The translations under genes were made by a program, and so were the position numbers. A DNA stretch of 64,000 nt from Blastocystis hominis (lineage: Eukaryota; Sar; Bigyra; Opalinata; Blastocystidae), in assembly GCF_000151665.1 (NCBI RefSeq), contig NW_013171860.1, positions 746,138 to 810,137 on the forward strand, read 5' to 3'. The notes under the pieces were generated by a model, which saw only the letters and a program-made list of their open reading frames with translations, was not told the DNA's origin and made no database searches. Of this stretch, positions 6,272 to 64,000 are shown in pieces (the first letter of the stretch is position 1; each line of letters starts with the position of its first letter).

Positions 6272-7999
6272 ATGGAGGAAAACGAAGCATCGACGTCCGA
6301 CAGCTCGGTCGAGAGCGAGTCGGAGAGTCAGGATTTGTTCGATGGACTGGCTCCGGAAACTATTGTACTTTTTGTTGTGAGGGTGGGGCGCTTATTCCCT
6401 AGGCGCTTATAAAGAGCAAGATGCAAGTTGCTCAAGAACAGTTTAAAGTTTTTAATAAAAACCAAAAGGTCCAGAAAGTAGATCGTTTCATAATGTGGTT
6501 GAAAGATCTAGATTGAAGATGTACGCAGAATGTATCCTCAACTGAACGATATGGGAATCGAGCTTGCTTTGGAGTCTTGCAACAACAACGAGGTAAGATC
6601 GATTTGAATTTCGCAGTATCGCCTAGTTGTTGTTGTTTAGAAGGTTCCGCGACGAAGGGGGCTTTTTGAATCGCATTATCGACATGAGCACAGGGAAAAT
6701 TCCAGTCGATAAAGAAGCGATTCAATACGTGGACCCCAAAAAGATCAAAAAGCCGGTTGTGGAGAGTTCCACGTCGAGCGGGGATGAAAACGAAGACTGG
6801 TGCGATACTCCCAGCAGGGGAAGGAAGCGTAGATACGCCAGTGATGATTCTAGTGAGATCGATGATTTTCCTGAGACTTCTCGAAAGTGAAATTCCAATA
6901 TCTTTGCGATTTGTAGACATCCAAGGCGAAAAGCTCCGCGTGTCGGTTTGGATGACTCATTATCTCATGTTTGTGGTCCTTTCTCTATTTAAAATGCAGC
7001 TTGCGAAGAAAGTTTCAACGCGAGGCCACGCGAAATCGCGCAGAAGCCACAAAAACGATGATGATGAGTTTGTAATCGATACAGTCGCTTCCACTCCCGA
7101 CGGTACTTTGCAGTGCGAATACTTTTTGATTCCACAGATTTCGAGCTGTCAAAACCCACGCATTACTCCTATCGGTCGAACGTGACGACGAAGCAGCTGG
7201 TGGATTTGGGCTGGAGCAACGCCCGAATCAAAGCGTTTTGTTTGTTTGTTTCAATGACACTCAGTTACAAAAACAGATATCAGAAGCCAAACCAGTATTA
7301 TTACCGGTTTAACGATCCTGGAGAGAAGCAAATGACCGGGAAATGGTCGGCGCAGGATCGGTTTTTGTTTTTGAAGCAGTTGATCGATGGCGGAGTGAAT
7401 TATTCGGTGGGATTTGTGTTTGTTTCGTTCCGAGTAGTGGGGATTGTTTTCTCGAAAGATCCCTGGACGCGTGGGATATCAGTGCAGCAATTATTACCGC
7501 CAACTGATCCGCGAAGGCGTGATCATCGATGACAATTATTATGTGGATCAGAACAATCGATTGGCGTTTAAGTTTAAAACGCGATCGAATTCGGTGTCAA
7601 CGAAGAAGCGCAAGACGTCGAAGAAGTCAAAAGAATTCCGTGACTTGGATGATTTGGATGTGGATTCGTTTGATTATTCGCAATTAGAAGAGAAGAATTG
7701 TTTGCCTGTTTTTGTTTGTGGGGTGTTTGATTTTCAGGGATTTATCGATGTCCTGACGATGGAGGAGGTCGTAAAGCCTGCGATTTCTCCGTATGGACAT
7801 GTTTTGGGTTACGATACGTGGATGAAGGTGCTGAATCGAGAGCCGAAGAATACATGTCCGTTTACGAAGAAGGTGGGATAGAGAAAGGGATGTGAAGAGT
7901 AGAAGTTGAATCGAAGACAACTCGAGAAGCTAACGTTTGCCAATATAGATCAGTATCGTGATAAAATCGTGGACATGCAGAGTCATTTGGGAAAGTTTT
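6272..7999 (+). CDS. CUE/UBA-like, SANT/Myb and U-box-like nuclear protein; stop completed by poly(A)
   Basis: Starts MEENEASTSDSS with an acidic Ser-rich tail. After introns of 38 and 34 nt comes RRMYPQLNDMGIELALE, which resembles a CUE/UBA helix pair. A basic, serine-rich middle (GRKRRYASDDSS) follows. Then a SANT/Myb-type fold: GKWSAQDRFLFLKQL and VGYQCSNYYRQLI. The C-terminus PAISPYGHVLGYDTW then KNTCPFTKK resembles a degenerate U-box. The frame ends at codons GGA AAG TTT T (last base 7999); the encoded frame runs on past the poly(A) motif at 8004-8011. With cleavage after 7999 the tail supplies AA and makes TAA. The likely role is chromatin- or ubiquitin-linked; exact function unknown. 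Confidence 0.72.
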
Positions 8000-8003
8000 G
8001 GAT

Positions 8004-8011
8004 TGTTTGTT
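8004..8011 (+). terminator. Poly(A) motif that would complete a TAA stop
   Basis: TGTTTGTT. The in-frame T at 7999 is followed by 4 nt (tggat minus its first t, i.e. ggat) and then this octamer. Cleavage after 7999 plus the poly(A) tail gives TAA. Confidence 0.7.
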
Positions 8012-8048
8012 TGAGTATGAAAGCAACAAACTGAGAAAAGGCTAAAAA

Positions 8049-9082
8049 TCATTGCGAATTGTTTTCAGAAGATAGCTTCTGTTCATCTTGTTGATCGTTT
8101 TGCTGCTCATCTTGTTGATCGTTTTGCTGCTCAACTTGTCGATCGTGTTGCTGCTCAACTTGTCGATCGTTTTGCTGCTCATCTTGCTGCTCATTCATTT
8201 CGGAGTAAAGAATTCGGTGGATTTTCTCTGAGAATTCGGTTTTTTCCTCGCGCTATTTCATCACACCAAACTCCCATTCCTACAAGCAAAAGCTCGTCGA
8301 TTTCCACCAGCTTCTCATTGTAATAGTCTCGCTCCCCCTCCAAATTCTTCATCTACCGTCGCAATCAACGCAATTGAAAATACTTCTAAAATCAATTTGT
8401 GAATCGTCGCGTCTTTTTCTTCGATTTGCTTCTTCAATTCGGCTACACAATCAAACGATAATCCTTCTATCACCGATTTCAGACTCAAAATCAACTGCAC
8501 GCTTTGCAGGCATCACTTTGAGTTTCTTCGCTAATTCTTAAGCATCAAACAAACAAGGAACATGATGGAGAGTTCATCGCCTCGCCCTGAGAAGAAGGGC
8601 TGCTGGACGCAACCGAATGATAGGAGCGATGGGATGAACTCCTCTTTTCCATGCCATTTTGGTGTAAATCGTAGAAACGCTTCAACCATTGCATGAACTC
8701 CAGATTATCCTGAGGACGTCCCTTCATTAGCTTTTCAACATCGATATTCTAGTTTGGATGTAACGAAATACCAATACTTTTTCAATTTTGTTCTTAACGA
8801 AGGCAGCTTGAAGAATCTTATAATTCTTCGAATATTCATAAGGATCCTTTGCTGCAGTATTGACTCGTTGTATAGGAACGGTGTCTATCTTGTCATCTTC
8901 CCTTCTTCCTTACCTGGGAAAATTAAATTGATGATCTGGCAAGCCACAGCGCCTACACTTTGAAAATAACGAAAAGATACTCTACCAGACGCAGTTTCTT
9001 CAATCTTGTGAAGATTAAGATGAAGAGTACTGTTAATCCATTCTAGAAGTTCACTTCGTGATGCTCCCGTAGCAGCTTCCAT
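8049..9082 (-). CDS. EB1-type microtubule plus-end binding protein
   Basis: Reads from ATG at 9082 to TGA at 8051..8049. The N-terminal calponin-homology domain shows LLEWINSTLHLNL, CQIINLIFPGK, YSKNYKILQAAF and LEFMQWLKRFYD, as in EB1/MAPRE. A Ser-rich linker follows. Next is a coiled coil (LKKQIEEKDATIHKLI) and the EB homology end (ERDYYNEKLVEIDELL, then after a 31-nt intron EKIHRILYSEMNE). The tail is a Gln/Asp repeat (units like EQQNDQQD) rather than the usual EEY. The protein should track growing microtubule ends as a dimer. It converges on the SANT/U-box gene with about 50 bp between their ends and is divergent from the DIX-domain gene. Confidence 0.9.
8088..8195 (-). repeat. 24-bp coding repeat in the EB1 tail
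   Basis: Imperfect tandem copies of a 24-bp unit coding for EQQNDQQD or EQQNDRQV at the very C-terminus of EB1. About four copies with a few substitutions. Confidence 0.8.
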
Positions 9083-9184
9083 ACGCTAAACACATTATGA
9101 ACAACTATCCAATTTCGTTTCGTCTCTTCTTGTCATATCCAATCTTGCAATCCGTTCACACTCCCAGATTCATATTTGTTTAAA

Positions 9185-9858
9185 ATGTCGAAGAAGACCA
9201 GTGTTCTTTACTACATTCCTGAGGATGGAGACGAAGCAGATCACCCTAATGTGATGACGCTTGATAAAAATGCGTCTCAAGTCACATTGAAGGATATCAG
9301 AGAAGTTCGTTCCGTTAAGTATTAAAGTAAGGTTTAGGCGTTTCCTATCCCTGGAACGTATTATTTCCGTTTCAAGCGCACATTCAAGAATTCTTGGAGT
9401 ATTCTCCCTCCTTCGCATGTAATTCGTAGTTTGGTTCGATGTAACAGAAGATTCCGAAGTTGTTCCCAAATTTGACGGTTTGATCTTTGTGAAGGCTACT
9501 CGTTTGCCTGCTTCTGCCGCTCCAAAGAAGAGTAAGCCATCCGTAAAGAAGCCCGCAAGTCGTCCGAAGCCAACAAAGCCTGCAAAGCAAGAACCGAAAA
9601 AAGAGCTCGAAGAGGATTTTTTGCATAATATTGTATTCTCCCTAGCTACGGTTGAATGTAGGAGATGCCGTCATCCACGCCCGAGTTCGTTGAGCCACAG
9701 CAGCCCGAGATTGACTTCTTTAGCCCCGCTTCTGTTTGCATTTTTCCATGTTTTTGAGGTAGAATACATCCAATACACCCGTCAATAACGACGTGTTCGG
9801 TGAATACGACTTCCCCACTGCGAAACCAGTCGATCCGTGGGACGCGATCAAGATCTAA
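9185..9858 (+). CDS. DIX-domain protein
   Basis: Starts MSKKTSVLYYIPEDGD, the first strand and ubiquitin-like fold of a DIX domain (as in Dishevelled, Axin and DIXDC1). Removing a 33-nt intron gives LKDIREAFPIPGTYYFRFK, and a 31-nt intron joins the last strands WFDVTEDSEVVPKFDG and LIFVKATRLP. DIX domains polymerise head to tail to build signalling or polarity assemblies; DIX-like domains are also known from plant SOSEKI proteins and, as I recall, from some SAR protists. After the domain come a Lys/Pro-rich linker (KPSVKKPASRPKPTKP) and an acidic end (GEYDFPTAKPVDPWD). Short, about 180 aa, no other domain. Encoded TAA at 9858. The DIX assignment rests on pattern similarity, so a profile search should confirm it. 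Confidence 0.7.
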
Positions 9859-9905
9859 AACTGTTTTCAAACAAACACGTTAGCACACTTTCCACTTTTC
9901 CGTAC

Positions 9906-11775: not shown

Positions 11776-11895
11776 CTTTTTTGTTCAAAAATGAAAAGAA
11801 AAGAAAATAGGTCAATAGTACAAGAGAAGACATGCGCACAGTGGTTTTATGATTACGAAGTCCGAAATCACCACTTCCTGTTGAGAAAAATCGAA

Positions 11896-12670: not shown

Positions 12671-12688
12671 TTGGGTTATTTAGTGGGG

Positions 12689-12696
12689 TGTTTGTT
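12689..12696 (+). terminator. Poly(A) motif of bL19m abutting the next start codon
   Basis: Exact TGTTTGTT, 18 bp after the bL19m TAA and 13 bp before the ATG at 12709. The promoter of the next gene must overlap the bL19m 3' end. Confidence 0.6.
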
Positions 12697-12708
12697 TCAA
12701 AGATTGGA

Positions 12709-17566: not shown

Positions 17567-20042
17567 ACACGATTTGATTCACCATTTCGATGGTTTCTGC
17601 AACGGCCGCAGCGAGCACCTCGTCCTGGCAGCGAACTTCCCACGTGTTGATATCCACTTCAAATTGCACGTCCGTCGGGAGCACCACTCTCCAGATCGGC
17701 GTGTTTCCATCGCTCTGAACCTTTCCGAACTGCTCCTCGAGCACTTCGCGCATCATCTGCATCTTCTCATTCTGCGTGACGTCGAGGACCGAAACGCAGT
17801 CCGGCAGCTTCAGCGCGTCTCCTTCTTTCTGCGGAGGACACAGTATCTGCGCGTTCTACACTGGATCGCGAGCAACAGGCGTACAAGCGGGGACAAGACG
17901 TTCGAATCTTGCTGCAAAACGAGCATCAGCAGCGCGTTCGCTTTGAGATCCGTCTCGTAGCTGCTTCTCCACTCGATGATGTACTCGAATATGTGGTTTT
18001 GCTGCGCGTGAAGTCGGACGGAAATCGCATCATCAATCTGCACCGTCTTCGCTGCGGCGTCGAATTGCACCTGGTTGGTGATCATCGTCGCCACGGCCAG
18101 AATCGCGTTGAAGTCCAGCCGCGTCTTAAAGTGCTGCCGATAGAGAATTCTGCAGAGTTTTAGCTGCGTGAACTTATCGATGTCGTCTTCCGCGATTATT
18201 TGATACTTCAAATCCTTCTTCACGAGCACTCCGCGCACTCTCCCGCTCTCCCGCCAGTTCTGCTCGGCGGCCTTGCCCAGGACGCTCACGATTTTGGGGG
18301 AATGGTAGCTGAACAGCAGTCTTTTCTGGTTTTCGGGCGTGTAAAACTACCGATTTCGATCAAACCCCGATCACTACGCTGATCAAATCGCGATTCACCA
18401 AATCCTCCAGCTTCTCCTTCAGCCCGCTCACCAGATCGTTCATCCTCGACACCTCTCCGTGCACTACGCCTCACGCTCTCGCCGCTGCTCCACCCAGCAC
18501 CACGCGTTCGGGTTTTGTCGCTTGAATGAACGAACTCGTTCCGGGGAAATCCGAGTGCGCCGAGAAGCTAATCGTCACCACTTTGCACTTCACGTCGATC
18601 GTCTCCATCTGCTTCCCGCTCAGCGGGATGATCCGGTCGTTGTCTTGCAGCCGGCGCGCGATCGTCCGCTACATCGCACAGGAACCGCGGGAATACCGCC
18701 ATGCAGTAGCCGGTGAGAATGACGAGATTGTTCTCGCCGCTGGCCATGCGCTCCAGAACGTCGCGCGAAGTGCCGTTCTCCATCATGGCGGGAGAGCAGA
18801 GGATGACGCAGGGCGGGAGCTTGTTGAAGTCGCGGAGAAACTGCCGGTGAGGGGAAAAAAAAGGGGAAACGGAGTCGATGGGGTCGGGGATGTCGACGTT
18901 GGGGAGATCGAACGGGTTTTCCTGCATGCGGATGGACTCGTTCATCATGTTAATGGACTTCTAGACGTGAGAGGATTGTGTGTTTGTGTGCCTGGAACAA
19001 CATCATGCTCTTCTTCGCCAGCGGGTTCAGATAAACAATGTTCCCGTGCCGGCTGATTTCCGGGTGTTTTTCCCAGTATTCGTTCAGCAGCAGCAGCAGC
19101 TCCTGCGTCCTGCCCAGCGCAAACACCGGGATCAGCACTTTGCCGCGCTTTCGCAGCGTGTCCACCACCTCCTCTGCACATCAGCCGCGCATGAGCATCA
19201 TCACTCGTGAGCCGGTCTTCGCGCTCGCGCCGGCTTTCGTGCGAGATTCGGCCGTAGGTGCTCTCGCAGATGACGACGTTCAGGCGGAGCGGCGGGATTT
19301 CCGCGGCGGGAAGGTGGCGATCTTCTTCGCGCGAGAAGTCCCCGGTATACCTCGGAATCAAGCGGGAACAGCGGCTACAGCACACGGATGCGGTCGATCT
19401 CCACGCAGAACATGGCGGCGCCGAGCACGTGGCCCGCCTGGAAGCATTTCACCTTGATGCCGTTGTGCCAGCGGTCCTCGTGGAAATTGATCGTTTCCAT
19501 CATCTTGATGCACTTCTCCAGCTGGCTCACCGAGTAGATGCTGTCTTCTTCATCTTCCGTGGCGGTGATGGCCAAGTAGTCGCGGAGAATGCTCTCCATG
19601 ATTTCTTTGGTGGGGGGCGTCATGAATATACGCGTTCGGCGCTGGCCCGTCTCGCCTGTATCAAAGAAGCGACGCTCTAACGGAATAACGCAAAATCTTC
19701 ATATTCATACGAGGAAGTACGGGCAGAGCTCCGCAGTGATCGAGGTGAAAGTGGGATATCAAAACTAGGTCGACGTAATCGTCGTTAATGGCATCTAAAT
19801 ACGGCAATGTGCCCTTTCCGACTCCACTATTCCATCAGATATAACCAACCATCCAAACTCTGGAAGCACTCCGCAATCAAATAATATAACCTTTCCTTTG
19901 TAACTCATATAAATGCAAGACCGTCCAACCTCTCTTCCAGCGCCTAGAGGCTGAATAATCAAACGGTCTCCATCAACTTCTGTATTCACTGGTCTAGCGT
20001 CCAGGCAACCCGCTGTTCCTACCCATTGGCATAAAACACCAT
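17567..20042 (-). CDS. CPSF3: CPSF73, pre-mRNA 3'-end endonuclease; own stop completed by poly(A)
   Basis: Metallo-beta-lactamase/beta-CASP nuclease that cuts pre-mRNA before polyadenylation. ATG at 20042; a 29-nt intron leads to [15 protein letters not shown]. Zinc ligands: [11 protein letters not shown] (motif 2), [10 protein letters not shown] (motif 3), [12 protein letters not shown] (motif 4, after a 28-nt intron), the beta-CASP motifs ICESTYG and [16 protein letters not shown], and [13 protein letters not shown]. The C-terminal domain ends [12 protein letters not shown] then [10 protein letters not shown]. About twelve introns of 28-34 nt; one, at 18961-18991, is GC-AG. There is no encoded stop where the protein should end: the frame is ATC GTG T, 4 nt, TGTTTGTT, and reading on gives about 20 extra residues unlike the family. 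So the enzyme that makes mRNA 3' ends appears to need that reaction for its own stop codon. Confidence 0.93.
18961..18991 (-). other. GC-AG intron in CPSF73
   Basis: A 31-nt intron starting GC instead of GT. Removing it joins KKSMMLFQ to [10 protein letters not shown] in phase, as in other CPSF73 proteins. Its length matches the commonest intron size here. Confidence 0.75.
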
Positions 20043-25891: not shown

Positions 25892-28925
<3,034 letters not shown>

Positions 28926-37706: not shown

Positions 37707-37886
37707 TCAACCAGTGTACTATGTGCAACTCTTACTCTGTGTTCCATGTTTGTTTCTTACCATTTCGTTAAAAGAAGGGGTGGGGAGGCACCGACGAAGC
37801 TAGAGAGTGTCCTTCCAGGAGTGGAAAAACCATCATGGAACACAACGTGAATACGCAACAAACAGATAACCCACAGTCGTGATTTC

Positions 37887-39901: not shown

Positions 39902-41748
39902 ATGGAAATCGAAGAAGGTGCTGCCGTCCAGGAAACCGTGAAGCTTTCGCTTCCCAGTAGGGGATGAGTTGCTTTGCTGATTTTATCTAGTCTTTCAAAC
40001 AGTCCAGTCGTGGCAACAACAAAACGGAATGCGACAAAATGATTATGAACGCTATAGACATTTTTGTTCTGTAAAGCTCCAAAGATTCTGCAAGAAAATC
40101 GGATTTATCCAGAGAAACGGAAAGGTGTTCGAGAAGAAGACATTCGAGGAAAAGAACGTCAAAAACGCGAATTCTCTCTTCTATCCTCTATTGAATGCGG
40201 AGCGAGCCTGGGCTTATTCAAACGAGTTAAAAGAGGAACTGAATAGCACACGCGAGTCGCGCATCCAGTATCACTTGCTGAGTCGAATCCGGAAAGCATG
40301 CAAATGGTCTTCTCTGCTTCTGACTCTCTGCCGTTCCCTCGCGGATGAGCGCACAATCCTCGAGAGCGATGCCTACCATTCCTACATGCAGGGCACAGAG
40401 CGCATGGAAAGCGGCGACTGGGTGGATATTAGTTCACTTTCCTAACTCTAGAAAGGCGCGATGGAGCAATTCCTGCGCGTGAAGAAGGTGTTCGAGTCAT
40501 TAAGCCAATTAGGTTCTTCCTCGCATCGCGATCTTTTCAACACGCGTCTCACGCAGCTCTCTCCCATCCTCCGCTACTGCGAGTACAACCTCAAGCGTGC
40601 CGAGGGCGAGAACGCGGCCGCCCTGCTGGACCTCCTCTCTTCCGCGGATAATTCGCAATTATCGCAGCAGCTAGCGGACCTGATTCAAAACGAACTCGTC
40701 GAAAGCAGCGAGGAGCTTCGCGTCGTCTCCTTCCGCGGGCTTTTCCTCCCCGTCGAGACCGAGGAGCTGCGCAAAGCCTTCCAGGAGGTCCGTGCCGCCG
40801 AGCAGGCTCTGCTCCGCCTCCGAGATTCCCGCGGGGAGGACGAAGAACGCGTGCTGGAGAGTTTTGGTCGGGTTTTCGAGGCGTTTGATCGGGTTTTGCG
40901 CGTGCTGAGCACGGAGCGCGATCGGCTGTCGAAGTCGGCGAACGGGCTGCGATTCCGCGACACGGAGCGATTATTCGCGGTGGAGAAACTGGGGAAACAG
41001 AGAAGGATCGTGGAACGAAACGTGCTGATTTTGAACGGGTGCGTCGACGCGCTGCGATCGGGGCAGTCGACGAATTGGGGAAACTTGGTGGCGCTGTAGG
41101 GACGGTGGAAACGTGGAACGTAGTGCGTCGAACATCGTGGAAGCGTTGGAGGAGCTGCACGCGCTGAACGGAGAATTGTCGCAGGGCGCGGAGGGCGAAG
41201 CAAAATTGGCGGGCGAGCGTCTGAGCGCGGCGATCGACGAGCTGCATTTGCTGTACCGCGCGGTGCGCGCGTTTTACGCGGGGAAGGGCGCGTGCGAGAA
41301 CGGGAAGTTCGAGTACGCGAGCACGTTCTGCCTGTTCGCGCAGCAAATCGTGGGAGAATTGAGGGAGGACGCGGCGCCGAGCATCTTCGAGAACGATGCC
41401 GATGCGTTCGTGTCGCTGCGATTCGCGGGGAATCTGCGCGAGGACTTGGAACTGCTGAGCTGCAGCGTGAAGGCGCAGGCGCTGCTGGCGAAGAGCGAGG
41501 CGGAGAAGAAGGGAGAAAGAGGCGCGGAGGGCGAAGAAATGGCGAGGTATTTGAGCGAGGACGCGAAGCAGAGAGTGGAATTCGATGCGCGCGGACGGTA
41601 CCGAGTGACGCCGATCCCGGTAGCGATGAAGACGACGACGTGCAAGCCGCTGTTCTTTGATATGGTCGATGAAAGGGTGACGTACCCGAATTTGGAGGCG
41701 CGGAGCCGCGTGGCGGAGAAGAAGGGATGGTTCAGTGGTTGGTGGTGA
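39902..41748 (+). CDS. SRP68: SRP68, signal recognition particle subunit
   Basis: Binds SRP RNA with SRP72. MEIEEGAAVQETVKLSL, a 34-nt intron, then QNGMRQNDYERYRHFCSVKL, LLNAERAWAYSNELKEEL, YHLLSRIRKACKW (RNA-binding tetratricopeptide-like region), MEQFLRVKKVFESL, RLTQLSPILRYCEYNLK, and the conserved end CKPLFFDMVDERVTYPNLE then KKGWFSGWW. Introns of 28-34 nt. The final codons TGG TGG are followed by TGA whose T (41746) lies exactly 4 nt before TGTTTGTT (41751-41758), so the encoded TGA and a poly(A)-made TAA overlap. Confidence 0.92.
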
Positions 41749-41750: not shown

Positions 41751-41758
41751 TGTTTGTT
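41751..41758 (+). terminator. Poly(A) motif overlapping the SRP68 stop context
   Basis: TGTTTGTT placed so that cleavage would fall inside or just after the encoded TGA. The spacer to 42066 holds only simple AT/GA-rich sequence and, on the other strand, a TGTTTGTT (42009-42016) for the surface-protein gene. Confidence 0.6.
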
Positions 41759-42066: not shown

Positions 42067-45000
42067 TTAGACCTTCACATTTCGCGTTTTCTCTCGCTTC
42101 TTCTGCACGGTTTGCTTCTGCTTCTTCACTCCTCCCACCGTCTTTCTCCGTCTCGTCAGTCGCATCGCCACGAACACCACGAACAGCACGACCAGCACGC
42201 CCACGAGCACCAGCACGCCCACCATCAGCATCGACACGCACATTCCCGTCGCGCGCTCCCACTCCCCGTCGCTCTTTCCCAGCTTGCACACCCGTCTCTG
42301 CGTCCCCACGTAGCTCCCCTGCGTGGAGCACTGGTACACCGAGGTCTCGCCCACGGGAGTGATCGGCCACGGGCCGTCCAGCGGGCAGCGCCCCAGCCGC
42401 ACCTGGACGCTCACCTCCGCGCTGGCCACGCCCTTCGGGTTCGACGCGAAGATCAGCACCGTGCGCGGCTCGCCCACCTCCACGGGGGTTCCGTAGATCA
42501 CGCCGGTCTGCGCGTTGAGGCTCAGTCCCGCGGGGAGCGCCTGTCCCTCGGCGACGTACCACTCGGTGACGATGTTGTCGTAGGTGGGCGCGGCGGACTC
42601 CGCGTAGACGTCCTTCACGAACACCAGGTTCCGCGCGGCGTACGCGACGTTGGCGGGGGTTTTGTAGACGCAGCGGTCGGTGAAGACCTCGGAGAAGGTC
42701 CCGTTCTGGCAGAGGCGATAGGAGTAGCCCGAGAAGCCGGGGTCGCACTTCGAGGGCGAGAGCTGGCCCTCCGACACGCTGGGGAAGCCCTCCATGGCGG
42801 GACACACCACGCCGGTGGCCTTGCAGTAGAGGAAGAGCATCTCCGCCATGTTGATCGGCCGGTTCGGCAGCGCGTCGGTCTCCCAGCGGAAGCTCTGGTA
42901 CCCGCCCAGCCCCGCGGGGACCTCGAACAGCGCGCGCGTGCGCGACAGGATCGTCACGTTCGTCGCGCTCTGCAGCGGAGTGAAGTCGTCGTCGTCGGAG
43001 CCCAGCTTGCCCGCGAGGGAGAAGGCCCAGCTCGCGGCGTCGTTGTTGGAGAGGAAGCCGTAGGAGTTGAAGCGCGCGCCCTCGAGGTTGGCGGTCTCCC
43101 AGGCGAAGAAGGGGCGGCCCGCGTTCTCGAAGCGCGCGGAGGTCTGCGGAGAAAGGTCCAGGATGTCGGCGACGGCGCCGGAGTCCATGGTGGAGGTGGA
43201 GGTGGCCACGAAGGAGTCGCGCACCACGGAGCAGTCGTTGACGCCGAACACGCCCGTGGCGTAGAAGACGATGGGCTCGGCCGTGGAGGTGCCCTGCACG
43301 CGGTGCAGCTCCACAGCGAACACGTTGCGCGTCGGCGAGGGCTCCACGGTGGCCAGCACCACGTGGAAGAACACGGGCAGCGTCGCGTCGTGCGCCTCCG
43401 GCGCCTGGGTGTCGCTATTCACGTCCTCGGGGAGATTGAAGCGCGCCACGCGGTGCCCGTTGAAGTACGCCGCCAGTCCGCCCTGGAACTTCACCAGCAC
43501 GTTCAGCACCGGGTAGTCCTCCACCGTCGGCAGCGCAAACGTCGTGCGCAGGTACACCGTCACGCCGCCGCGGTTCCCGATGGCCCCCGCCTTCACGGCC
43601 TCCCACGCGGAGTCGTCGAAGTCCACGGCGGTCCAGGCGTCGGAGCGCGCCTCGCGGAAGATCTTCCACTCCGAGAACTCGTGCTGGAACGGGAGGAACG
43701 ACGAGAAGCTCAGAAGCTTCTTCGATCCGGAGGGCGACTCGCCGAGCATTTCCGCCTCGAAGCGGAACGCGCCCTCGTCGACGCTCAGCATGATTCCAGC
43801 GGGGATCGACCAGCCAAAGCCGCGCTTGTCCGCGATCCGCACGGTGTAGAGCGCGTCTTCAAGGCAGAAATCGAAGTAGAGCAGCGTGGAGGACAGGCCG
43901 AAGCCGTCCTTCGAGGCGATCAGCGTGCCGCCTTCCCCGCGGCCCTCGAAGAGCGCGTAGGACCCGTCGCTGGGGTTGTAGTCCGTCCGCACGGTCAGCG
44001 TGATCAGCGAGCGCCCGTCCGTGCAGAGACTCACCGTGAACTGCAGCGTGCAGGTGGAGTTGGTGCCCTGGATCGACACGGCGGACACCTGGTGGGTTCC
44101 CGAGGTGATTTCGCTGGCGGTGCCGGAGATCATGCCGGTCATCACGTCCATCGAGATGCCCGAGGGCAGCGCGGGACTGACCTGGAAGTTGGTGTAGAAC
44201 TCGCTGTTGGGGTACACTTCGGCCATCTCCACCTTGCGATACACCGTCACGGGGGGATAGCTGAGCGGAGGGATCTCCGCGTCCACGCCCGCAATCACCA
44301 GATCCAGCAGAGGGATGCGCCAGCTGTCATCCTCGGGCAGGATGTCGTAGAAGCGGTACTGGTTGTAGGGCTTCGAGTTCACGATCCAAATCGACTTCAG
44401 CTGGCCGGCAAGCGACCAGGTCATGTCGTTCACGACGGCGAGCGTGACCCAGTTCAGCTCTTCGGGGTTTCGCGCCTGCAGCTTGAAGGACTTGGGGTTA
44501 TAGTAAGATCCGGAGAGATAGTTCACGATCTGCACTTGGTTGATCGTCTCACGACGGTTCTTCGCGAAGGTGATCGTGAGGGAGCTGAGACTGATCCCCG
44601 ACCGCACGTAGGTGCCGCTGTAATGATCGAACGCGTTGCTGGGCGGGTCGTAGATGCCTTCGCCTTGCACGGAGTAGTCCCACACGCGGCTTCGCTCTTC
44701 CTTGTTGATCAGACGAAGCGAGCAGTCGAAAATCGACGCGGTCTGTGACGCTGCGATCGCGACCAGAGCGATGGCGATGCTGTTGCTGCCTTCCACGAGC
44801 AGATTGGCCGCAGGGAGCGACACCAAGCGGAACTCCTCCTCCTGGTAGCTCGTCGTGGCGACGGAGTCGGACGACAGAGCGCCCTCCACGCCGTAGCGGA
44901 ACGCCTCCTTCGCGTTGATGCTCACGATGATTCCGTAGCGATACCGCACGCTCAGCGTGAACGACGACGCGTTCGCCAGCGAGTCGATCGTGAAGGCTCG

Positions 45001-46981
45001 CTTGTACAGCTGCAGCCGATTGGAGGAACTGGGGAAACTTCCCGCGGACGCCTGCTCCCACCCCGCGGTGTCCGCGCTCTCCCAGTTCTGTGGGACTTCG
45101 CCCATCTTGTAGGACCAGGCCTCGCCCGTGCTGATGGGATAGTCCAGGCCGATCGTGTAGGGCTGCGGCAGGCCGAGCAGCGGGTCCAGCCGCGCGCGGA
45201 GGAGCGTTTCTTTGGAAGTGGGGTCCAGCATGGCGTGGACGTAGAGGTAGGACGCGGAGGCCCAGGCCAGCTCGCCTTCCGTGCTCAGCGTGACTTTCGT
45301 GTCCTCGACGCAGAGCAGATTCGTCACTTCGTCGTAGTCCTTGTAGGAGTGGTTCGGCGGCACGCTGAGCAGAACCTGTCCCGCCGAATCGCGGAGCGTG
45401 AAACCCTCCAGAGAGGCGCTGGCGGCGTAGACGCGCTGGAGCTGCACCACGGTCGATGCGCAGCCCTGCAGGACGAGCGAGAACGAGCCCGAGATGCCGC
45501 CGTTGATGGGAGAGGTCATCGTGTAGGTGGTGTTCGGCGCGGCGGCCTGCGCTCTGCCGGTGATCGTGCAGGTCGTGCTGTCCAGAGAAAGGCCCTGCGG
45601 AAGGGACGGCGTGACCTCGCAGTTGGTGATCTCCGTGAGCGAAGGCTTGATCAGGACGGGCTCGTACTTCGCGAGGAACGAGTAGGAGCTCGACGGGAAG
45701 TCAATCACGCTCACCGACTCCACGGCACACACGCAGAGCTGCATTTCGTAGGCGTAGCCGATCCCTCCGGACGCCGCGAGCACGTCGATCTGGTAGTAAC
45801 GCCACGGACTGGGGACGGAGGTCGACGTGCGCGTCTGGTACTCGTTGAACTGGTAGACCACGTCGGTCGCATGCAGCACCACGGTGTACGCAGAGGTCGT
45901 CGAAGACCCGCTCAAGCGGTACTCGCGGGGAGCTTGCGCGTAGTGCGACGCGGGGAAGATCCGAACTCCGTTCACAGCGGGCGCCACGTTTTCGGTGTAG
46001 TGATAATTGACGGTGGTGGGGTAGTTCGGAATGTACATGTAGTCGCCGATGTCCCAGTTGAACGATTTCGCCACGTCGGTGCGCGCACCGGTGATCTCCA
46101 CATCGTAAGGCACCACGTAGCATTGGTCATCGTTCCCGGAAATGTACTCCGCCAGCCAAGCATCGAACTTTCGCGTCGATTCGGAGACCTGCTCGGGGAG
46201 ATGGATCGCTACGCTCAGCACGCTCTCGCTCGCCACCTCCAGGCCGTTTCGAATCACACCACGATATTGATAGGTCTCGTAGGAGCCTGTAGCGGGGGTT
46301 GTCGCGTCGATCACGCCCGAGGGAAGGTTGTCTCGGTAGATCTCAACGCCGTTGATGTAGGCGATGATTCCATGGCCATAATTGAAGCGAACTTCGTAGG
46401 CGGCAGCAACAGCAGCAGAGAGACCAGTAAAAGAGTAACGATAGAACTGAGTCGCGGAGGGAGAAGAAATATCTGCTTCGTAGGCAAGTTGCGTCCATTC
46501 GGTGTCGACGAAATCCTTCTGGTTCCAGTTTTCAGCCACATTTCCTTGGAAGAACTTCCAATCCTGCTCAGTGACAATCGGGTTGTACAGGGAGATAGGG
46601 TGATATTCTTCGCTGATATCCACCATATTCCCCTTGTAGACGGTATTACCATAGGGTCCGCTGATCGAAACCCACGCTTTTGAATCCCAACCGTCATTAT
46701 ACGAATCTACCAAACGAATCCTGTACTGCGAATTTGTGGTCTGTGAAAGACACCCTTCGTAGGTAACATAAGTATTGCTGGCAAAAGGGGGAGAAGTGTA
46801 CAACTTTTCTTCTCCATAAATCTCAACCACCTCTTCTTCGGCATAGTCACCAGACTGTTTAGCGAGTTTAAAGTAAACTTGATTTTCTCCACATTCCAAA
46901 CTCTTCACCGTGGAATGCACGACTATGTATTAGGAAGCAATATTGAAAGGTACGTAGCAATATGAACAGCCAAGTAGCCAT
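42067..46981 (-). CDS. Giant type I surface protein with repeated beta-sandwich and Ig-like modules
   Basis: About 1630 aa, one 31-nt intron inside the signal peptide (MATWLFILLLVHS), otherwise a single exon of almost 5 kb. Three related sandwich modules can be seen: DWKFFQGNVAENWNQKDF, SYKMGEVPQNWESADTAG and EWKIFREARSDAWTAVDF, each followed by an Arg-Tyr/Leu strand and an F-N/I-N-G-x-E/R-x-x-R strand, resembling galactose-binding domains. Putative Ig (He_PIG-like) modules carry ALPSGISMDVMTGMISGT and ALPAGLSLNAQTGVIYGT. Two Cys-rich repeats near the end (CQNGTFSEVFTDRC; DGPWPITPVGETSVYQC) precede the TM (VLVLVGVLVVLFVVFVAM) and a basic tail (RLTRRRKT). A secreted or cell-surface adhesin or lectin is likely; ligand unknown. 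Large antisense ORFs over it are shadows. Confidence 0.75.
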
Positions 46982-49538: not shown

Positions 49539-51624
49539 ATGACCGAAATCGAAGGTAAGGGTGATCTCAAAACGAGTACTTTAAAGATACACAAGAGATG
49601 AATTACATCGACGAACTAATAGAGGAGCTGCACAGTGACCAGCCAGCAGTCTGTGTCGCGGCTATGAAGAATTTGAAAATAATTGGTATTTTTTCGGCGA
49701 GTTTGTGATTCTAGCTACTTCTTTGGGCGAACAGAGGACACTTGATGAATTATTGCCTTATCTTCATGGTATCCATAGTTTGGTAAAGATAACGAGTCAG
49801 AACTTATTGACAGTGATGACGAAGTGCTTGTGGCGATGGCAGACCAACTTGGTAAGCTTGCAAATCATTTGTATCTTACAATGATAGGCGATTTTCTTCC
49901 CTTAGTGGGTGGTTCCAAGAATACGGAATACATCCTGGATATTCTGGAGAAGCTCTGCACCATGCAGGAAGTCTCCGTGCGTGAAGCAGTACCCTTCTTT
50001 TCTCAACTCTTCACGCTAGGCAACGAAAGCCATCCTCAAGATCTGCGAGTCGCTGAGTCCCGAAGAAATCAACGAATACATCCAAGCCACCGCGATCCAC
50101 ATGTACAACAGCGAATGGTTCACATCGAAGTCGTGTTTGGCTTTTCTTTTCAGTAGAATCTGCGTCTGCTCGCTGCTCCCCATCCTCTACAAGACGAAGC
50201 AAGCCACCGGGGACTTCGACACCATCATCGAAATGTACGACGAGCTCTGCAAGGACAGCACGCCCATGATCCGAAAAGCCGCGATTTCCGTCATTCCCGA
50301 ATTCATCAAGGTCATGGACGTACACACCCGCCCTTTTTTCGATGTAGCCGGAGAGCTGCAAGCTCATTCTCGTCCGCGATTTGTACTTGCTGGTCCGCGA
50401 CGATCAAGAAAACATCCGGATTTTTGGAAACGCGAGCTGCGTCGCGCTGGCGCGCGTGCTCTCCGAAGAAGACCGCGGGACTTTGATCCTCCCGCTCTTT
50501 TTGGAGCTCGCCGAGGACAGTAGTTGGAGGGTCCGCTACACGACGGTGACGCAGATCGGCGAGATTTGCGCGTTGTTCCCGCGGGAATTGGTGGAGAGCA
50601 AGCTGTTGCCGGAGTTCCTGAAACTGCTCCAGGACAACGAGTTGGAGGTGCGTACGATCGCAGCGAGCTCGATCAGCGCGATTTGCAAGTATTTGCGCGT
50701 GGAGAAGGTGGAGGAGATGATCAGCGTAATGACGATTCTCAGTTCGGATGCGAGCGAGCATGTGCGTGTTGGGCTCGCGAGCGACTTCCTAAGTAGTCAT
50801 TTGCGGCGTGTTTGAGCTAGATGTGTGCGCGATCGTGGGTTCCGAAACCACGGAGAAACTGATTCTGCCGGTGTACTCGCGGTTATTGGCGGATCCCAGC
50901 ACGAAAGTGCGATTAACCGTGGTAGGGAACTTCGACAAAATCAAATCGGTTCGTTTTTGTGTTTCTGTGTTCCTCAGGTGTTGTCACCGCAGATCCTCGC
51001 GACGAGTCTGCTGCCCACGCTGCTTTCTCTCAAAAACGACCGCGATTGGCGCATTCGTCAATATCTGCTCACTCTCATCCCGCTTCTCAGCGAGCAGCTC
51101 GGCATCGACATCATGACGCGCGAGCTCCGACCCATCACCTGCGAGTGGCGCTATCGCATCCTCTCGATGAGTAGTTACACGACGGACACGGTGGCGGCGG
51201 TGCGCGAAACGGCCGCGGAGATTTTGAAGCGACTGTACGTGATGTACGGGGAGGAGTTTGCGGAGAACACGCTGCTGCCGACGCTCAGTGATTTGGTGCA
51301 TAACGAGAAGTACATGCTGCGGATCACCGGGCTGAATATTATCGCGGTTGGGGTGGGAGGAGGGGATGATGATTAGACGGTGGGGGTGGAGATGCCGATG
51401 GTGACGGTGTGCGATCGCGTGGTGGCGATGATTCGGGATGTGAGGGACGATCCGGTGGCGAATGTGCGGCTGACGGTGGCGAAAACGCTGGCATCGCTGA
51501 AGGGGAAGTTCTCGGAGGAAGTCTTGGAGGAGTTCGTTTTCCCGACGCTGGAGAAGTATTGCGCCGACTGTGATCGTGATGTACAATATTTCGGAACAAT
51601 GGCGATGGAACACTTGCGATCATA
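49539..51624 (+). CDS. PPP2R1A: PP2A scaffold subunit A (HEAT repeats); stop completed by poly(A)
   Basis: Scaffold joining PP2A catalytic and regulatory subunits. MTEIEDTQEMNYIDELIEEL, then DSDDEVLVAMADQLG, IHMYNSEWFTSK, DSTPMIRKAAISVIPEF, EDSSWRVRYTTVTQIGEI, ELVESKLLPEFLKLL, NDRDWRIRQYLLTLIPLL, EEVLEEFVFPTLEKY, QYFGTMAMEHLRS: consecutive HEAT units in the PR65 order. Ten or so introns, two of them unusually short (about 20 and 24 nt). The end reads CGA TCA TA (last base 51624), then cttt, then TGTTTGTT: poly(A) addition makes TAA. The encoded frame would otherwise run on for about ten codons past the motif. DIM1 begins 43 bp later. Confidence 0.92.
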
Positions 51625-51628: not shown

Positions 51629-51636
51629 TGTTTGTT
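51629..51636 (+). terminator. Poly(A) motif that would complete the PP2A-A stop
   Basis: TGTTTGTT, preceded by in-frame TA (51623-51624) and 4 nt. A single A from the tail completes TAA. Confidence 0.72.
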
Positions 51637-54122: not shown

Positions 54123-54150
54123 GCTGCAACAAACAACTCAAACCTCGCAC

Positions 54151-55257: not shown

Positions 55258-55293
55258 GGGGAAACTGAATAGATGTGAAGCAACAAAGTTGTG

Positions 55294-57202: not shown

Positions 57203-57370
57203 GGAATGGATTGATAGATAATGAACGCGGAGTGTTTGTCACAAACAAACAATTATGTTGAATTTGGAAGAGGTCACTGATGCACCCTTGCCAAGCCACG
57301 ACGGAGGACAGTTCGGACTGGCTCCCCTATTTCCATAGTTTATGAGACAATCGTCATATTTGTCAAGCGC

Positions 57371-57581: not shown

Positions 57582-58011
57582 CTCTCAATGAAGCAAGAAA
57601 CAGTGAATATCGTAGAGAAACTATAGTTAAAAATAAACTATACAATCGCATACAAATCAGAAATCAATGAAAAGAGACTCAAAAAGAAAGCGACAATTGA
57701 AGCAAAGAAGCCTTTCTTTTCTTCAACCACCTGCCCTATACTTAAGGATCACTTTGTATCAATACCATTCATGATTTGAGCCATTGGTTTAAATCAATAT
57801 TACCAAAAAATGAGGAGGAGAAAGAGGATAATGGGTGCAAACTTTTGTTTATGACTGGTTTTCAATTTTAAGATAATGTTTTTAGGATTAGACTCTATTC
57901 ACCCTATGCTTTTAACTGTATCTTTTTACTAAATGAATGCTTGCTTTATTGCCATCACCATATTCGCTCTCTCTCATCGTTATTTTCCAACAAACAAATC
58001 CACCTTCTACG

Positions 58012-59638: not shown

Positions 59639-59890
59639 GAAAAGGGAAAAGTAGTGTTTTAAAAAACGTATTTGAGCACTGTAACGTGCAATTAATCATT
59701 ATGGGTTGCTACGATTGTATCGATCATTTGGTATGTGTGTGCCCTATCCACAAAATAATGGGTTCAGCAAAGAAAACAACTTGGAATGAACACAAAATAG
59801 CGAGATTATTTGAATTCCAGATTTCTGGACTTTGTCTTAGATATGCATTTTGGACATCTCTAGAGATTATTATCTATTTCGATTGTCAGT

Positions 59891-61950
59891 ATGCAAGGTG
59901 CAACCGAAACGGCTACCGAGAAATATTCTGCTGTCCTAAATAACTTGCGTATGCTGTCTGAGAAGAAGAAGGCCTCTGCCCTTCTTCCGGTTATGCGTAA
60001 AATGACTAAATATCTTCACAAGGCTGATTATCAACTTATTGACACTGTATTGCAACATATCCTTGTTCTTGTTTATTTGAAATGTGGAATTCTTAACGTC
60101 ACTGCTACCGAGGATCCGCACAGGAAAGGACGATAACAAAGTGGTAAATCTTATCCATCTGTTTTGTGTTCATTGTGCGAATTCTGTTTCTCAGGAGCAG
60201 TGTGCTGTATCGTCTCCTTGTTGCTCCATGAGTCCTAGGCTTACGCAAACCAACTCCTGGCAGAAACCGAGCAAACCTACTCTGCTCGTGCTCTCTCCGC
60301 GTTAAAGGCAAGTTGCGTTCTTCTAAAAGTTTCGGGAAGTATCCCTTTATTTCTTATTGAACCTAGATAACAACGCATTAAAAGATCTCCTTCTGCGTAG
60401 CGTAAACGACGCCAAGACTGGTTCTGTACTGCATTTTCCTCCTTTTCAATCGCAGAGCTATCTCAGCTCCTGCCTCCCCGAGTTGTTCTGCATCCTGCAT
60501 TACAGCAATCTGGACTGTGCGGAGCTGGACGACATCATCACCTGGGGCTTCTCCTCCCAGGACGTGGGCGTGCTCCGCCACTGCCTCGGCATGCTGCTCT
60601 CGCTCTTCGAGGTGGACCCCACGCGCGCGCAGAGGCTTTTAGGCTCGGTGTTGAACGACCAGGCTCTCGCAAAACTGATCAGCGAGGACGGAATCGCTTC
60701 GGTGTGCTCGATCCGCTGCTGCTGGGCGCTTTACAAGGCCACGAAGAGCGCCAACGTGCTGACGTACCTCGCCTCGATGGCGTGTCAAGGCGTGGTGGCG
60801 TCGCGCATGCTGGCCATGGAGCTGCTCTCGCTGCTTCCGTACGAAGTGCTGTCGACGCTTCCCTCGACCACCTCGACGAATAAGGACAGTAGGGCTGCGG
60901 ATTGGCGCCGAGCGGTAGGCTTGACGCAGTCCATCGCGGAGACGGTGCGCGACTGGCTCCTCGCCTACAAGAACCAGAACGATAACGTGGGTCTGATGGC
61001 GGTGGCGCGCGTCCTGATCAATCTGGCGCAGTGTCTCACCACGCACTTCGGCTCTCGCAATCGCATCGACGGCTCCGCGGAGCTGCAGGCCACGCAGCAG
61101 GCTCTGAACACGATCTACACCACGCTGGTCGCCTTCAAGACTTCGAACAGCGTCTATCTGCAGTCCACGCTGCTCAAAGCGTCGATCTGGCTGGTCGATC
61201 CGCCCACTGCCGAAACGCAGAGCGTCTACGTCGATCTGGTGCGTCGCACGCGCGAGCTGCGCCTCCCCGTCGAGGTGGCCGACGAAGTGCTGCAGCAGCT
61301 GGCGGGCCGCGCGCTGAAGACACCGACGCTGGCGTACTTCGCGATGGAAGTGATGTGGGCGTGGTTCCTGCAGAACCCGATGAAGGTGAGCGTGAACGCG
61401 CTGCTGTCGACCTGGAAGGCCTGCTTCGCGCTGCGCGACATGGTCAACTGCAGCGCCGTGGTGGACGTAGAAACGGAGAAACCTTGGCATGTAGTCGGTG
61501 TTCCGGTTCCTGGACTTCTCGACGCCGAACGAGGAGTTCCATAAGCATCTCGCGCTGCTGAAGTGCGCCGCGTACTGGTTCCTCGGCGAGTGCTGCGAGT
61601 TCTTCGCGATGGCGGACGGCCTGCTGGAGTGCCGCCAGATCATCCAGTCCATTCTGCTGCGTCTGCAGAAGGCGGCGGTGCTGGGCGACTGGGAAGTGCG
61701 CCGCGAAGCGATCCGCTCGCTGGGGAAAATCGCGCTGGTGAGCGAGGACCCGATCCGAATCTGCGTCTATGAAATGCTGCAGAATCTAACGAAGATGGTG
61801 AGTAGCGAGGACGCGGAGGTGTACAACGATCTCGTCGAGCCGATTCTGGATGTGCTGGACGATGTGTACGAAGCCATCGAGAACGATGAAGACCCCACGC
61901 CGATCCTGAAGAGCGAAGCCGCACTTTTCCATCAGAGCGTTATCAATTGA
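59891..61950 (+). CDS. HEAT/ARM-like helical protein, unassigned
   Basis: MQGATETATEKYSAVLNNLR, then LPVMRKMTKYLHKADYQLID; unresolved short introns near 60.05-60.35 kb; then one long exon: CILHYSNLDCAELDDII, GVLRHCLGMLLSLFEVD, SIRCCWALYKATKSANVL, RMLAMELLSLLPYEVL, YLQSTLLKASIWLVDPP, ALKTPTLAYFAMEVMWAW. After an intron near 61.49 kb comes a clearer HEAT segment: GDWEVRREAIRSLGKIALVS, then an acidic tail (DDVYEAIENDEDPTP). About 600 aa of paired helices without a family I can name. Encoded TGA at 61950, one base and 4 nt before TGTTTGTT. The short ORF at 59701 (MGCYDCIDHL) upstream may be an unrelated leader. Confidence 0.55.
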
Positions 61951-61995
61951 TCGTGTGTTTGTTGAAACAAACAATGGAAACTCACAACACTTTTC

Positions 61996-62045
61996 TATAT
62001 ATATATATCTATTGAGATATATATGTAAATATATATATATATATG
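61996..62045. repeat. AT dinucleotide tract
   Basis: Interrupted (TA)n runs between the convergent 3' ends of the HEAT-like gene and the GT61 gene. Confidence 0.9.
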
Positions 62046-62047
62046 TA

Positions 62048-63388
62048 TCAACCCAGGGACTGGACGACGTGCAGTAGCGTCGTGGCGTCCATTTCCACGT
62101 CGCAGTGAGCATACGGGTGGAACCACCAGCTTCGGTCCTTTTCGCTCGGTAGATTCACGATCGTCGCATTCGCGATCGCCACGTAGCGAATCTCCGCCTG
62201 TTTGGCCATTTCGCGGTACATATCCAGAATGAAAAACGGGTTAAACAGCTCGATGACAGCGCTCCCAGGCTGCAGAAACAGCAGATTCACAAGCTGCGCG
62301 CCATGGTTTGAAATGATCACTTTGGACGATTGCATGATTCGAACTTGCTCGCAGAAGCTTTTCTCCGCGAAGTTGTGAATCTGCACGTCGTAATCCGCTT
62401 CGCGGAGCACAGAAGCGATTTCTTCTTCGTTCACGAGGTGTCTGCGCGCTCCTTTCCGCGACAGCAGCGTTACAAATCGAGCTGGCTGGAGGGGCGACGC
62501 ATCGCAAAATTTGTAAGCCTGCTTTCGAATCCATCGCGTTTCCTCCACACTGGAAAACGTTTCGGTCATCGAAGTCACCAAGGGGAAAAGCAGAACGTTC
62601 TCAAAGCGGAGCCACGTTGCATCGCCGCTCCATCGTTCTCGTTCGAGAATGGTGGGCTGTTGATCGCTGGGAAGAGCTGAGAGAATCGTGAGAAGGTACG
62701 ATCGACCCCATCCATCGAAAGACCCTTTGTTTTTGTCGTGAGAAAAGTATATGAAATGAAGCTAGATTGAAAAAAGAGAGATGGAAACTACTGGAGGATA
62801 GTAGGATACGTTCATGGCGTAGCGAAGAAGGGAATTCAAACTTTCCAAGACGTGATAAATGTTGTTGTAGTTGCGAAATAGCAACACACCCACACCGTGA
62901 TAGGTGGAATTCACGTTCGGAGGGTGGACAATGGAGTGAATTCGGTACGTTGGATCTCCAGGAATGCTGGGAGCTTTGGACGGATAGATGTGCTCCAACT
63001 TGGAGAGGAAACTGAAAGAATTCAGAGATGGATTACAGTAGAGGGTAGGTGTATAGTAGGCGTACGAAGACAATGGAAAAAACTCATCTTCAAACGTTTT
63101 GAATAGAACCCCTTTCTCCACCTTGTCCATAAGAAAATTTCTATAAAGAGAGTAGCTACTGCAAAAATCATACGATTCCAGGTGCGCAAGCTTCTCCCAC
63201 TCGCCCTTCTTCCTCGCTTCTGTGCTAAAAGTCTCTGACTCCGCTTGCGAATTCGAACTAATAATATAGAAATGCGAGTTTCTATGTATCGGAGGAAAAT
63301 AGCTCTGGGCACGTTTGAAGAGAAGGAAATTCTTCCAAAGGGAAATTAGCAGTACGTACAGTACCAGCAGCACATAGAACCAGTTCAT
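62048..63388 (-). CDS. GT61 (DUF563) family glycosyltransferase
   Basis: Signal anchor MNWFYVLLVLYVLLISLW at the N-terminus (ATG 63388) places it as a type II Golgi/ER enzyme. Luminal part: STYHGVGVLLFRNYNNIYH, ESLNSLLRYAMNVSYYPP, a 29-nt intron, LHFIYFSHDKNKGSFDGWG, then the family core RFVTLLSRKGARRHLVN, DVQIHNFAEKSFCEQVRIM, SSKVIISNHGAQLVNLLFL and PGSAVIELFNP. The N-H-G-A-Q-L-x-N signature is that of GT61 (xylosyl-/EOGT-type) enzymes; the acceptor cannot be predicted. TGA at 62050..62048. The ATG is only 46 bp beyond the last coding base of the upstream FGAM synthase gene. Confidence 0.82.
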
Positions 63389-63421
63389 GCACCGGCACCC
63401 AAACAAAAATGACTTATCATC

Positions 63422-63429
63422 AACAAACA
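63422..63429 (-). terminator. Poly(A) motif that would complete the FGAM synthase stop
   Basis: On the minus strand: AGC AAT T (last base 63434), then gccg, then TGTTTGTT. Poly(A) addition makes TAA. An in-frame TGA overlaps the end of the motif. Confidence 0.7.
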
Positions 63430-63433
63430 CGGC

Positions 63434-64000
63434 AATTGCTCTCTTTGTACATTTCTTCGCACCACAACCGAGCATTCTGGAACATCTTCAGCCAGGGCGA
63501 TTCGGTGAACTCCCACTCCTCCGGCCAGTACGGCCACGCCCAGCGCGTCAGCAGTCGTTCCCTACATTTCACTCGCGCTCCTTTCCCTTACGGATGAGGC
63601 ATCATGCTGAGATGATGTCCGTTCTCCGAGCAGAGCGCCGCGATTCCATTCTCCGACCCGTTCGGATTATAGGGATAGTCCTCGCAGTAGTTTCCCTCAT
63701 TATCGACATATCGCATGGCGATGCATCCCTTGTCGAAGGCTTGCTGCTTGACCGCCTCGTCGGGCCAATAGCACTGTCCTTCTCCGTGCGCAATCCACAC
63801 TCCCAGCGTGCTGCCCTCCATGCCCCGCGTGAAAATCGAGTTCGACTGCTCGATCTTCACGTTCACGAAGCGGCATTCCAGTTTTCCCGCCTTGTTTTGA
63901 ATGAAGCGCGGCTGTTTGGCGCGGTCCGCGATCCGGAAGGGCACATAGTTGATCTGGCTCATGAGCTGGCACCCGTTGCAGACGCCCAGACTGAACCTGT
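63434..64000 (-). CDS. PFAS: Phosphoribosylformylglycinamidine synthase (FGAM synthase), 3' end
   Basis: C-terminal glutaminase domain of the large purine-synthesis enzyme, entering from the right edge. Visible: GVCNGCQLMS (nucleophile Cys, the LMS reading onward from the edge), QPRFIQNKAGKLECRFVNVK, SIFTRGMEGSTLGVWIAHGE with the catalytic His, RYVDNEGNYCEDYPYNPNGS, GIAALCSENGHHLSMMPHPE with the second catalytic His-x-Glu, where a 30-nt intron splits the Pro codon. It ends TESPWLKMFQNARLWCEE then MYKESN. The stop is completed by poly(A) (last base 63434). Confidence 0.93.

What the first reader, a model, noticed from the sequence alone, without database searches (positions are those of the whole stretch)
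7999..63434. At least five genes lack an encoded stop; T or TA sits exactly 4 nt before TGTTTGTT
In the SANT/U-box gene (T 7999), CPSF73 (T 17567), AspRS (T 28035), PP2A-A (TA 51623-51624) and FGAM synthase (T 63434) the family-like C-terminus ends in phase on T or TA, followed by exactly 4 nt and the octamer. Poly(A) addition would create TAA each time. Spacing is identical on both strands and across unrelated families. I recall such poly(A)-dependent stops being reported for Blastocystis with this motif. A genome annotator that demands encoded stops would mis-call these ends.
Basis: partly seen in the sequence, partly recalled or inferred. Interest (0 to 1): 0.85.

Follow-up and report, generated by a model that had tools for sequence, protein, structure and literature searches.

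The report
Stop codons completed by poly(A) tails
Several genes in this stretch of a Blastocystis (gut protist) genome lack a complete stop codon in their DNA and appear to get it when the poly(A) tail is added, a phenomenon first published in 2014; one of these genes makes the enzyme expected to do the cutting.

Summary
At all five sites an open frame with homologue support runs into a lone T (7999, 17567, 28035, 63434) or TA (51623-51624), then exactly 4 nt and TGTTTGTT. The octamer occurs 37 times in the window against 1.8 expected. In 314 kb, 9 of 11 octamers reached by an open coding frame yield a stop at 4-nt spacing (7 newly made, 2 TGA turned into TAA); decoys give 4 of 54, coding positions in general 1,118 of 14,950. 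The Blastocystis Nand II CPSF73 ends on exactly the aligned codon.

The mechanism is the published one: cleavage 4 nt upstream of UGUUUGUU, then poly(A) addition completing UAA (PMC4159000, 2014; 372 of 2,419 ST7 genes by ESTs). Genome size and protein identities point to Blastocystis, most likely ST7. Novelty: already known; these are further instances. RNA ends could not be examined.

Possibly new details: the CPSF73 gene itself lacks an encoded stop, and three octamers of the U-box gene lie in 30-31-nt introns, so the octamer alone does not mark a gene end.

The parts
7903..7999 (+). Terminal exon of MYB/SANT-U-box gene ending on lone T (7999)
   Evidence: 32 open codons then T, GGAT, octamer; with introns 7235-7264, 7407-7437, 7708-7737 and 7873-7902 removed the frame runs unbroken into ...LGKF|T; 10 of 11 aligned homologues continue through this segment
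8004..8011 (+). TGTTTGTT signal of the U-box gene
   Evidence: spacing 4 nt
17567..17855 (-). Terminal coding stretch of CPSF73 (CPSF3) ending on lone T (17567); the true exon start may lie inside this open stretch
   Evidence: PF11718 142-213/215; ends on the codon aligned with the last residue of Blastocystis Nand II CPSF3 P0006
17555..17562 (-). TGTTTGTT signal of CPSF73
   Evidence: spacing 4 nt
27831..28035 (+). Terminal exon of bacterial/mitochondrial-type AspRS ending on lone T (28035)
   Evidence: PF00152 to 307/308; last residue aligned to residue 575 of 580 of solved AspRS 1efw
28040..28047 (+). TGTTTGTT signal of AspRS
   Evidence: spacing 4 nt
51377..51624 (+). Terminal exon of PP2A scaffold subunit A ending on TA (51623-51624)
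   Evidence: matches PP2A subunit A 1b3u to its residue 582 of 588
51629..51636 (+). TGTTTGTT signal of PP2A-A
   Evidence: spacing 4 nt
63434..63587 (-). Last open stretch of FGAM synthase ending on lone T (63434); a predicted 30-nt intron 63591-63562 overlaps its start
   Evidence: PF13507 to 260/260, 8 residues before the T; joined C-terminus matches solved FGAM synthases up to 11 residues before the T; intron
63422..63429 (-). TGTTTGTT signal of FGAM synthase
   Evidence: spacing 4 nt
41035..41748 (+). Open stretch holding the end of SRP68: encoded TGA at 41746-41748, predicted cut after its T so the mRNA stop becomes TAA
   Evidence: PF16969 392-560/565; GAAG then octamer 41751-41758
41751..41758 (+). 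TGTTTGTT signal of SRP68

Best explanation
These are genuine gene ends whose stop codon is incomplete in the DNA. The nuclear cleavage and polyadenylation complex reads UGUUUGUU in the pre-mRNA and cuts exactly 4 nt upstream of it. Poly(A) polymerase then adds A, so ...U becomes ...UAA and ...UA becomes ...UAA, and the mRNA has no 3' UTR. Shown here: sequence anatomy, spacing, phase excess over chance, and homologue-supported C-termini. Taken from print: that cleavage and tail addition happen at this spacing in this organism, and that changing the motif together with upstream Ts cripples a reporter. Inferred: that these five individual mRNAs are cut at these bases.
For: Coordinates and phases exact. 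Octamer 37 against 1.83 expected. At spacing 4, 9 of 11 open coding sites make or rewrite a stop; at the other spacings from 0 to 12 at most 5 do (5 of 10 at spacing 3, 5 of 14 at 6 and at 7); 15 decoy octamers give 4 of 54 and all 27 other T6G2 octamers, under stricter settings, 3 of 35. Fisher P 1e-6, phase test P 6e-5. C-termini: with the distances given in the observation check. P0006, the CPSF3 of Blastocystis Nand II, is gap-free over its last 62 residues and ends on the codon before the T. AATAAA in 0 and ATTAAA in 1 of 108 upstream regions, though only about 2 each were expected. Published: 372 of 2,419 EST-mapped ST7 genes have such stops, and 2,333 of 2,419 have the motif, with up to two substitutions, at exactly 4 nt (PMC4159000). 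Changing the motif and two upstream Ts cut reporter output 324-fold (PMC6395660).
Against: No RNA ends could be examined. 2 of 11 open sites give no stop: 7234 is now explained as an intron border, 47497 is not explained. Three octamers lie inside introns of the U-box gene, so the octamer alone does not define a gene end. The codon model gives the U-box terminal exon no support. 13 of the 37 octamers could not be assigned to a gene end (my tally). T is generally favoured at -1, which inflates the plain T count. An early run with a poorly trained codon model gave only 2 of 4 at spacing 4.
Confidence: 0.95

Rival explanations
1. The genes do have encoded stops, reached by reading through the octamer or by one more small intron, as stop-demanding annotation would have it.
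For: Every one of the five frames does reach an encoded stop, ending 15 to 198 nt from the cut codon, and tiny introns of about 30 nt are common here.
Against: CPSF73 of Nand II ends on the codon before the T, and AspRS, PP2A-A and FGAM homologues end within a few residues (one solved FGAM synthase, 9n9w, is 35 residues longer than its aligned part). An mRNA reaching those stops would have to retain the octamer, which print places downstream of the cut (PMC4159000). The phase excess at spacing 4 would be unexplained.
Confidence: 0.03
2. The pattern is a by-product of a T preference at the cut site plus selective reading by the first stage.
For: T at -1 in 62 of 108 sites against 26% background; U at this position is also published (PMC4360255, passages).
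Confidence: 0.01
3. Assembly errors or pseudogenes destroyed the stops.
For: None specific; a draft assembly can hold errors.
Against: Five unrelated genes with the same 4-nt geometry; three more such open ends (L015, L027, L031) elsewhere in the genome.
Confidence: 0.01

Closest known systems
[quoted passage not shown]
   Same: Same motif, same 4-nt spacing, T/TA partial codons, unrelated families; also the class in which an encoded UGA is rewritten to UAA (SRP68 here).
   Different: Nothing essential. Here it is inferred from DNA alone; the five genes, including CPSF73, are not named in the parts of that paper that I read (parts 1 and 2 of 3).
Poly(A)-completed stops of mitochondrial mRNAs (as described in PMC4159000)
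   Same: UAA completed by tailing, no 3' UTR.
   Different: Organellar; here nuclear, in spliced genes, directed by a downstream octamer.
PAY* conversion in mammalian nuclear genes (as described in PMC4159000)
   Same: Nuclear cleavage inside a codon creates UAA.
   Different: Alternative, truncating isoform; here the predicted normal gene end.
CELF1-bound GU-rich element UGUUUGUUUGU (PMC3737555; search listing and start of abstract only; the 11-mer as the element's consensus is recalled)
   Same: Contains the same octamer letters.
   Different: By the abstract start, CELF proteins act in splicing, deadenylation and mRNA stability; here the element lies downstream of the cut. A lead for the unknown binding protein only.

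Membership tests
Blastocystis poly(A)-created stop genes | Host is Blastocystis | tested here: met
   CPSF73 54% to Blastocystis Nand II over 98% of the query, next hit (Labeo rohita) 36%, then Blastocystis 'Blastoise' 34% (120 of 6,119 hits listed); U-box 50% to Blastocystis ST4; genome 18.7 Mb. Subtype 7 is likely, not proven.
Blastocystis poly(A)-created stop genes | No encoded in-frame stop before the cut site | tested here: met
   Five of five
Blastocystis poly(A)-created stop genes | T, TA or TG of the last codon at the cut site, completed by A | tested here: met
   T in four, TA in one
Blastocystis poly(A)-created stop genes | TGTTTGTT exactly 4 nt downstream | tested here: met
   Five of five exact
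Blastocystis poly(A)-created stop genes | No conserved AAUAAA-like upstream element | tested here: met
   AATAAA 0 of 108, ATTAAA 1 of 108 octamer sites in 40 nt upstream; about 2 each expected, so the test is mild
Blastocystis poly(A)-created stop genes | Poly(A) tail attached at the predicted base in RNA | not testable with these tools
   No tool used here gives RNA reads or ESTs

The most novel reading that the evidence does not exclude
The CPSF73 gene, whose product is expected to be the pre-mRNA 3' endonuclease, depends on its own cut for its stop codon, and this acts as a homeostatic loop. When cleavage activity or precision falls, CPSF73 mRNA runs on and adds a 31-residue tail, or becomes nonstop if cut elsewhere, changing the C-terminal domain or the output of active enzyme.
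Probability: 0.07. Interest if true: 0.6.

Novelty: already known. Interest (0 to 1): 0.22.

Why it matters
As a phenomenon it matters because nuclear genes without encoded stops break a textbook rule and spoil gene models; that was recognised in 2014. What this window adds is modest: a DNA-only statistical test that works without ESTs, a visible case of a public ST4 gene model that seems cut short, octamers inside tiny introns that must somehow be ignored, and the finding that the CPSF73 gene is itself among the dependent genes, which makes a self-dependence question directly testable.

Tried and rejected
A first codon model trained on 113 long ORFs, probably contaminated by shadow ORFs, gave 2 of 4 at spacing 4. 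It was replaced by one seeded with peptides of window genes, 13 of 14 found, and refined on the sample. Strict settings left few sites (at spacing 4, 1 of 1, 3 of 4 and 6 of 7 open sites with spans 12, 20, 30; decoys 3 of 35 with span 20). One search used two thresholds: 9 of 11 and 8 of 10. The seeds come from four of the five named genes and SRP68, so the model is not independent of them; the outside-window sites are the cleaner test. Octamers closer than 20 nt to the previous one and those near stretch ends were dropped before counting (107 left and 108, of the 114 counted).

One-mismatch octamers were too sparse: 24 variants gave 5 stop-yielding sites of 38 open sites. Upstream AATAAA, ATTAAA, TGTAA and TGTA showed no clear excess.

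A feedback pattern across the 3'-processing machinery could not be judged. Matches to PAP, CPSF_A, Suf, Fip1, CSTF2-hinge and beta-CASP families were located, as were eRF1_1 matches, but their gene ends were not read; of the CSTF2 locus I looked at one strand only and found no usable end. No six-frame match for CFIm25 (NUDIX_2) or CPSF100_C; short introns may hide them.

The PP2A-A homologue search gave 5 hits, none named as Blastocystis, so its end rests on the PDB match. The CPSF73 exon had no PDB match of value. The Monocercomonoides paper raised is unrelated (passages).

Full report
What was checked. The octamer TGTTTGTT occurs 37 times on both strands of the window; 100 dinucleotide shuffles give 1.83 on average and 6 at most. 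At the five places named, the geometry is exactly as written: open frame, T or TA, four bases, octamer.

Are the frames real? Of seven terminal stretches scanned (five named, SRP68, and 8560), four pass a Pfam cut-off: CPSF73-100_C to 213/215, tRNA-synt_2 to 307/308, GATase_5 to 260/260 and SRP68 to 560/565; the profile ends lie 0, 24 and 8 residues before the T in the first three. PP2A-A has only a sub-threshold HEAT match; the U-box and 8560 stretches have none. PP2A-A matches a solved PP2A subunit A (1b3u) to its residue 582 of 588. AspRS matches 1efw through its last residue, 575 of 580. FGAM synthase with its predicted 30-nt intron removed matches solved enzymes to residue 1297 of 1301, 11 residues before the T; another solved enzyme, 9n9w, is 35 residues longer than its aligned part. 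The spliced U-box model has a weak U-box match below the cut-off, but 10 of 11 homologues aligned (chosen from 120 listed of 522) continue through the terminal segment, ending 1 to 12 residues after a shared KI or MI; this gene ends 10 after it. The exception is the public Blastocystis ST4 model P0127. With four introns of 30-31 nt removed, the U-box frame follows the family without the extra residues of my first model and ends ...LGKF|T. The best single test is CPSF73: the Blastocystis sp. ATCC 50177/Nand II protein (P0006, 717 aa) aligns without gaps over its last 62 residues, and its last residue pairs with the codon just before the T. The 'Blastoise' Blastocystis protein P0008 runs 2 columns further.

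Is the phase more than chance? On 314 kb (window plus 25 stretches of 10 kb, L009-L033) a codon model found 11 octamers reached by an open coding frame among 107 examined at spacing 4. Nine give a stop: six T, one TA, two encoded TGA rewritten to TAA. Two give none: 7234, which is the border of an intron, and 47497, unexplained. The U-box site 7999 is not among the 11, because the model does not recognise that exon. Fifteen decoy octamers of the same T6G2 make-up differing at more than two positions give 4 of 54. Over all positions called coding, sampled every 7 nt, 1,118 of 14,950 unencoded sites would yield a stop. T at -1 is favoured at 62 of 108 sites, so I also tested phase given T: 8 of 8 on codon position 1 against 29% (P 6e-5), 5 of 5 without the named sites (P 0.002), and 3 of 3 made stops outside the window (P 4e-4). 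The numbers are small, and the codon model was seeded partly with named genes.

Control against plain counts. Genome-wide the octamer occurs 7,304 times, counted with overlaps, and the reversed octamer 5,456 times, so abundance alone proves little. In the window the reversed octamer occurs 19 times, 18 of them overlapping an octamer.

The rest of the window. By my tally, 18 octamers mark about 16 other gene ends with an encoded stop 1 to 87 nt upstream of the predicted cut, median 25.5 nt; some rest on weak codon-model scores. Five are the named ends, one is SRP68, and 13 are unassigned. So five of about 22 assigned ends lack a stop, in line with the published 15% in ST7 (ESTs) and 26% in ST1. 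SRP68 (41746) shows the in-between class: an encoded TGA cut after its T.

What is known. PMC4159000 (2014; parts 1 and 2 of 3 of the text read) reports this from ESTs: 372 of 2,419 genes, the motif at exactly 4 nt, and 90 further genes with UAG or UGA rewritten. PMC4360255 (2014; passages) reports the motif and U at the attachment position. PMC5608401 (2017; passages) reports 1,693 ST1 genes (26%). PMC6395660 (2019; passages) shows that altering the motif and upstream Ts lowers a reporter 324-fold. Paper searches. In their listings (titles and abstract starts; 20 of 260, 20 of 691) I saw no report of CPSF73 among the dependent genes; the one listed paper with all three words does not address it in its Blastocystis passages. 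One search (Proteromonas) found no paper. Unheld papers may differ.

Which organism. G000 has 18,707,701 bases in 40 contigs, close to the 18.8 Mb published for ST7, and 7,304 octamers against 6,732 published for ST7. The counts do not match, perhaps because overlaps are counted here, so ST7 is likely, not proven; Blastocystis is well supported. That Nand II is an ST1 strain is recalled.

Open points. First, CPSF73, expected to be the cutting enzyme, lacks an encoded stop. This may be mere membership in a 15-26% class; a regulatory loop is speculation. Second, octamers sit in introns of the U-box gene, 7235-7264 (two overlapping) and 7407-7437. There the predicted cut at 7234 falls exactly on the exon-intron border, on a partial codon GC that A would not turn into a stop, so splicing must win or further context is needed. 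Third, the site at 8560 is ambiguous: an EB1-like frame (my recognition from the peptide; no search was run on that frame) would lose its stop on cutting unless a 53-nt intron is removed (intron by my reading).

Noticed in passing
window 7235-7264, 7407-7437, 7708-7737 (+): Introns of 30-31 nt in the U-box gene contain octamers (two overlapping at 7239/7243, one at 7417) or a near-octamer; with them removed the protein follows its family. The predicted cut of the 7239 octamer is exactly the exon-intron border.
   Followed up: partly
window 8530-8760 (-): EB1-like (recalled resemblance) frame whose encoded TGA overlaps the octamer at 8548-8555; cutting at 8560 would leave no stop unless a 53-nt intron is spliced. 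Possible sixth case or counter-example.
   Followed up: partly
window 61956-61973: Octamers on opposite strands lie 2 nt apart, so two convergent genes seem to end within 26 nt of each other; a looser pair is at 37747/37857.
   Followed up: no
108 octamer sites in window and L009-L033: The signal may extend beyond the octamer: T/G then G follows in 38 of 108 sites, and A is 39-54% at the next six positions.
   Followed up: partly
protein P0127 against P0126: The public Blastocystis ST4 MYB protein model leaves the family alignment just before the terminal exon, as expected if the annotator needed an encoded stop.
   Followed up: partly
genome G000: No six-frame match for CFIm25 (PF13869) or CPSF100_C (PF13299); beta-CASP matches at three places, one of them CPSF73. 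Introns may hide matches.
   Followed up: no
window 42067-46929 (-): An open frame of 1,620 aa with three stretches matching a putative Ig domain (He_PIG), opposite a 937-aa open frame without a Pfam match.
   Followed up: no
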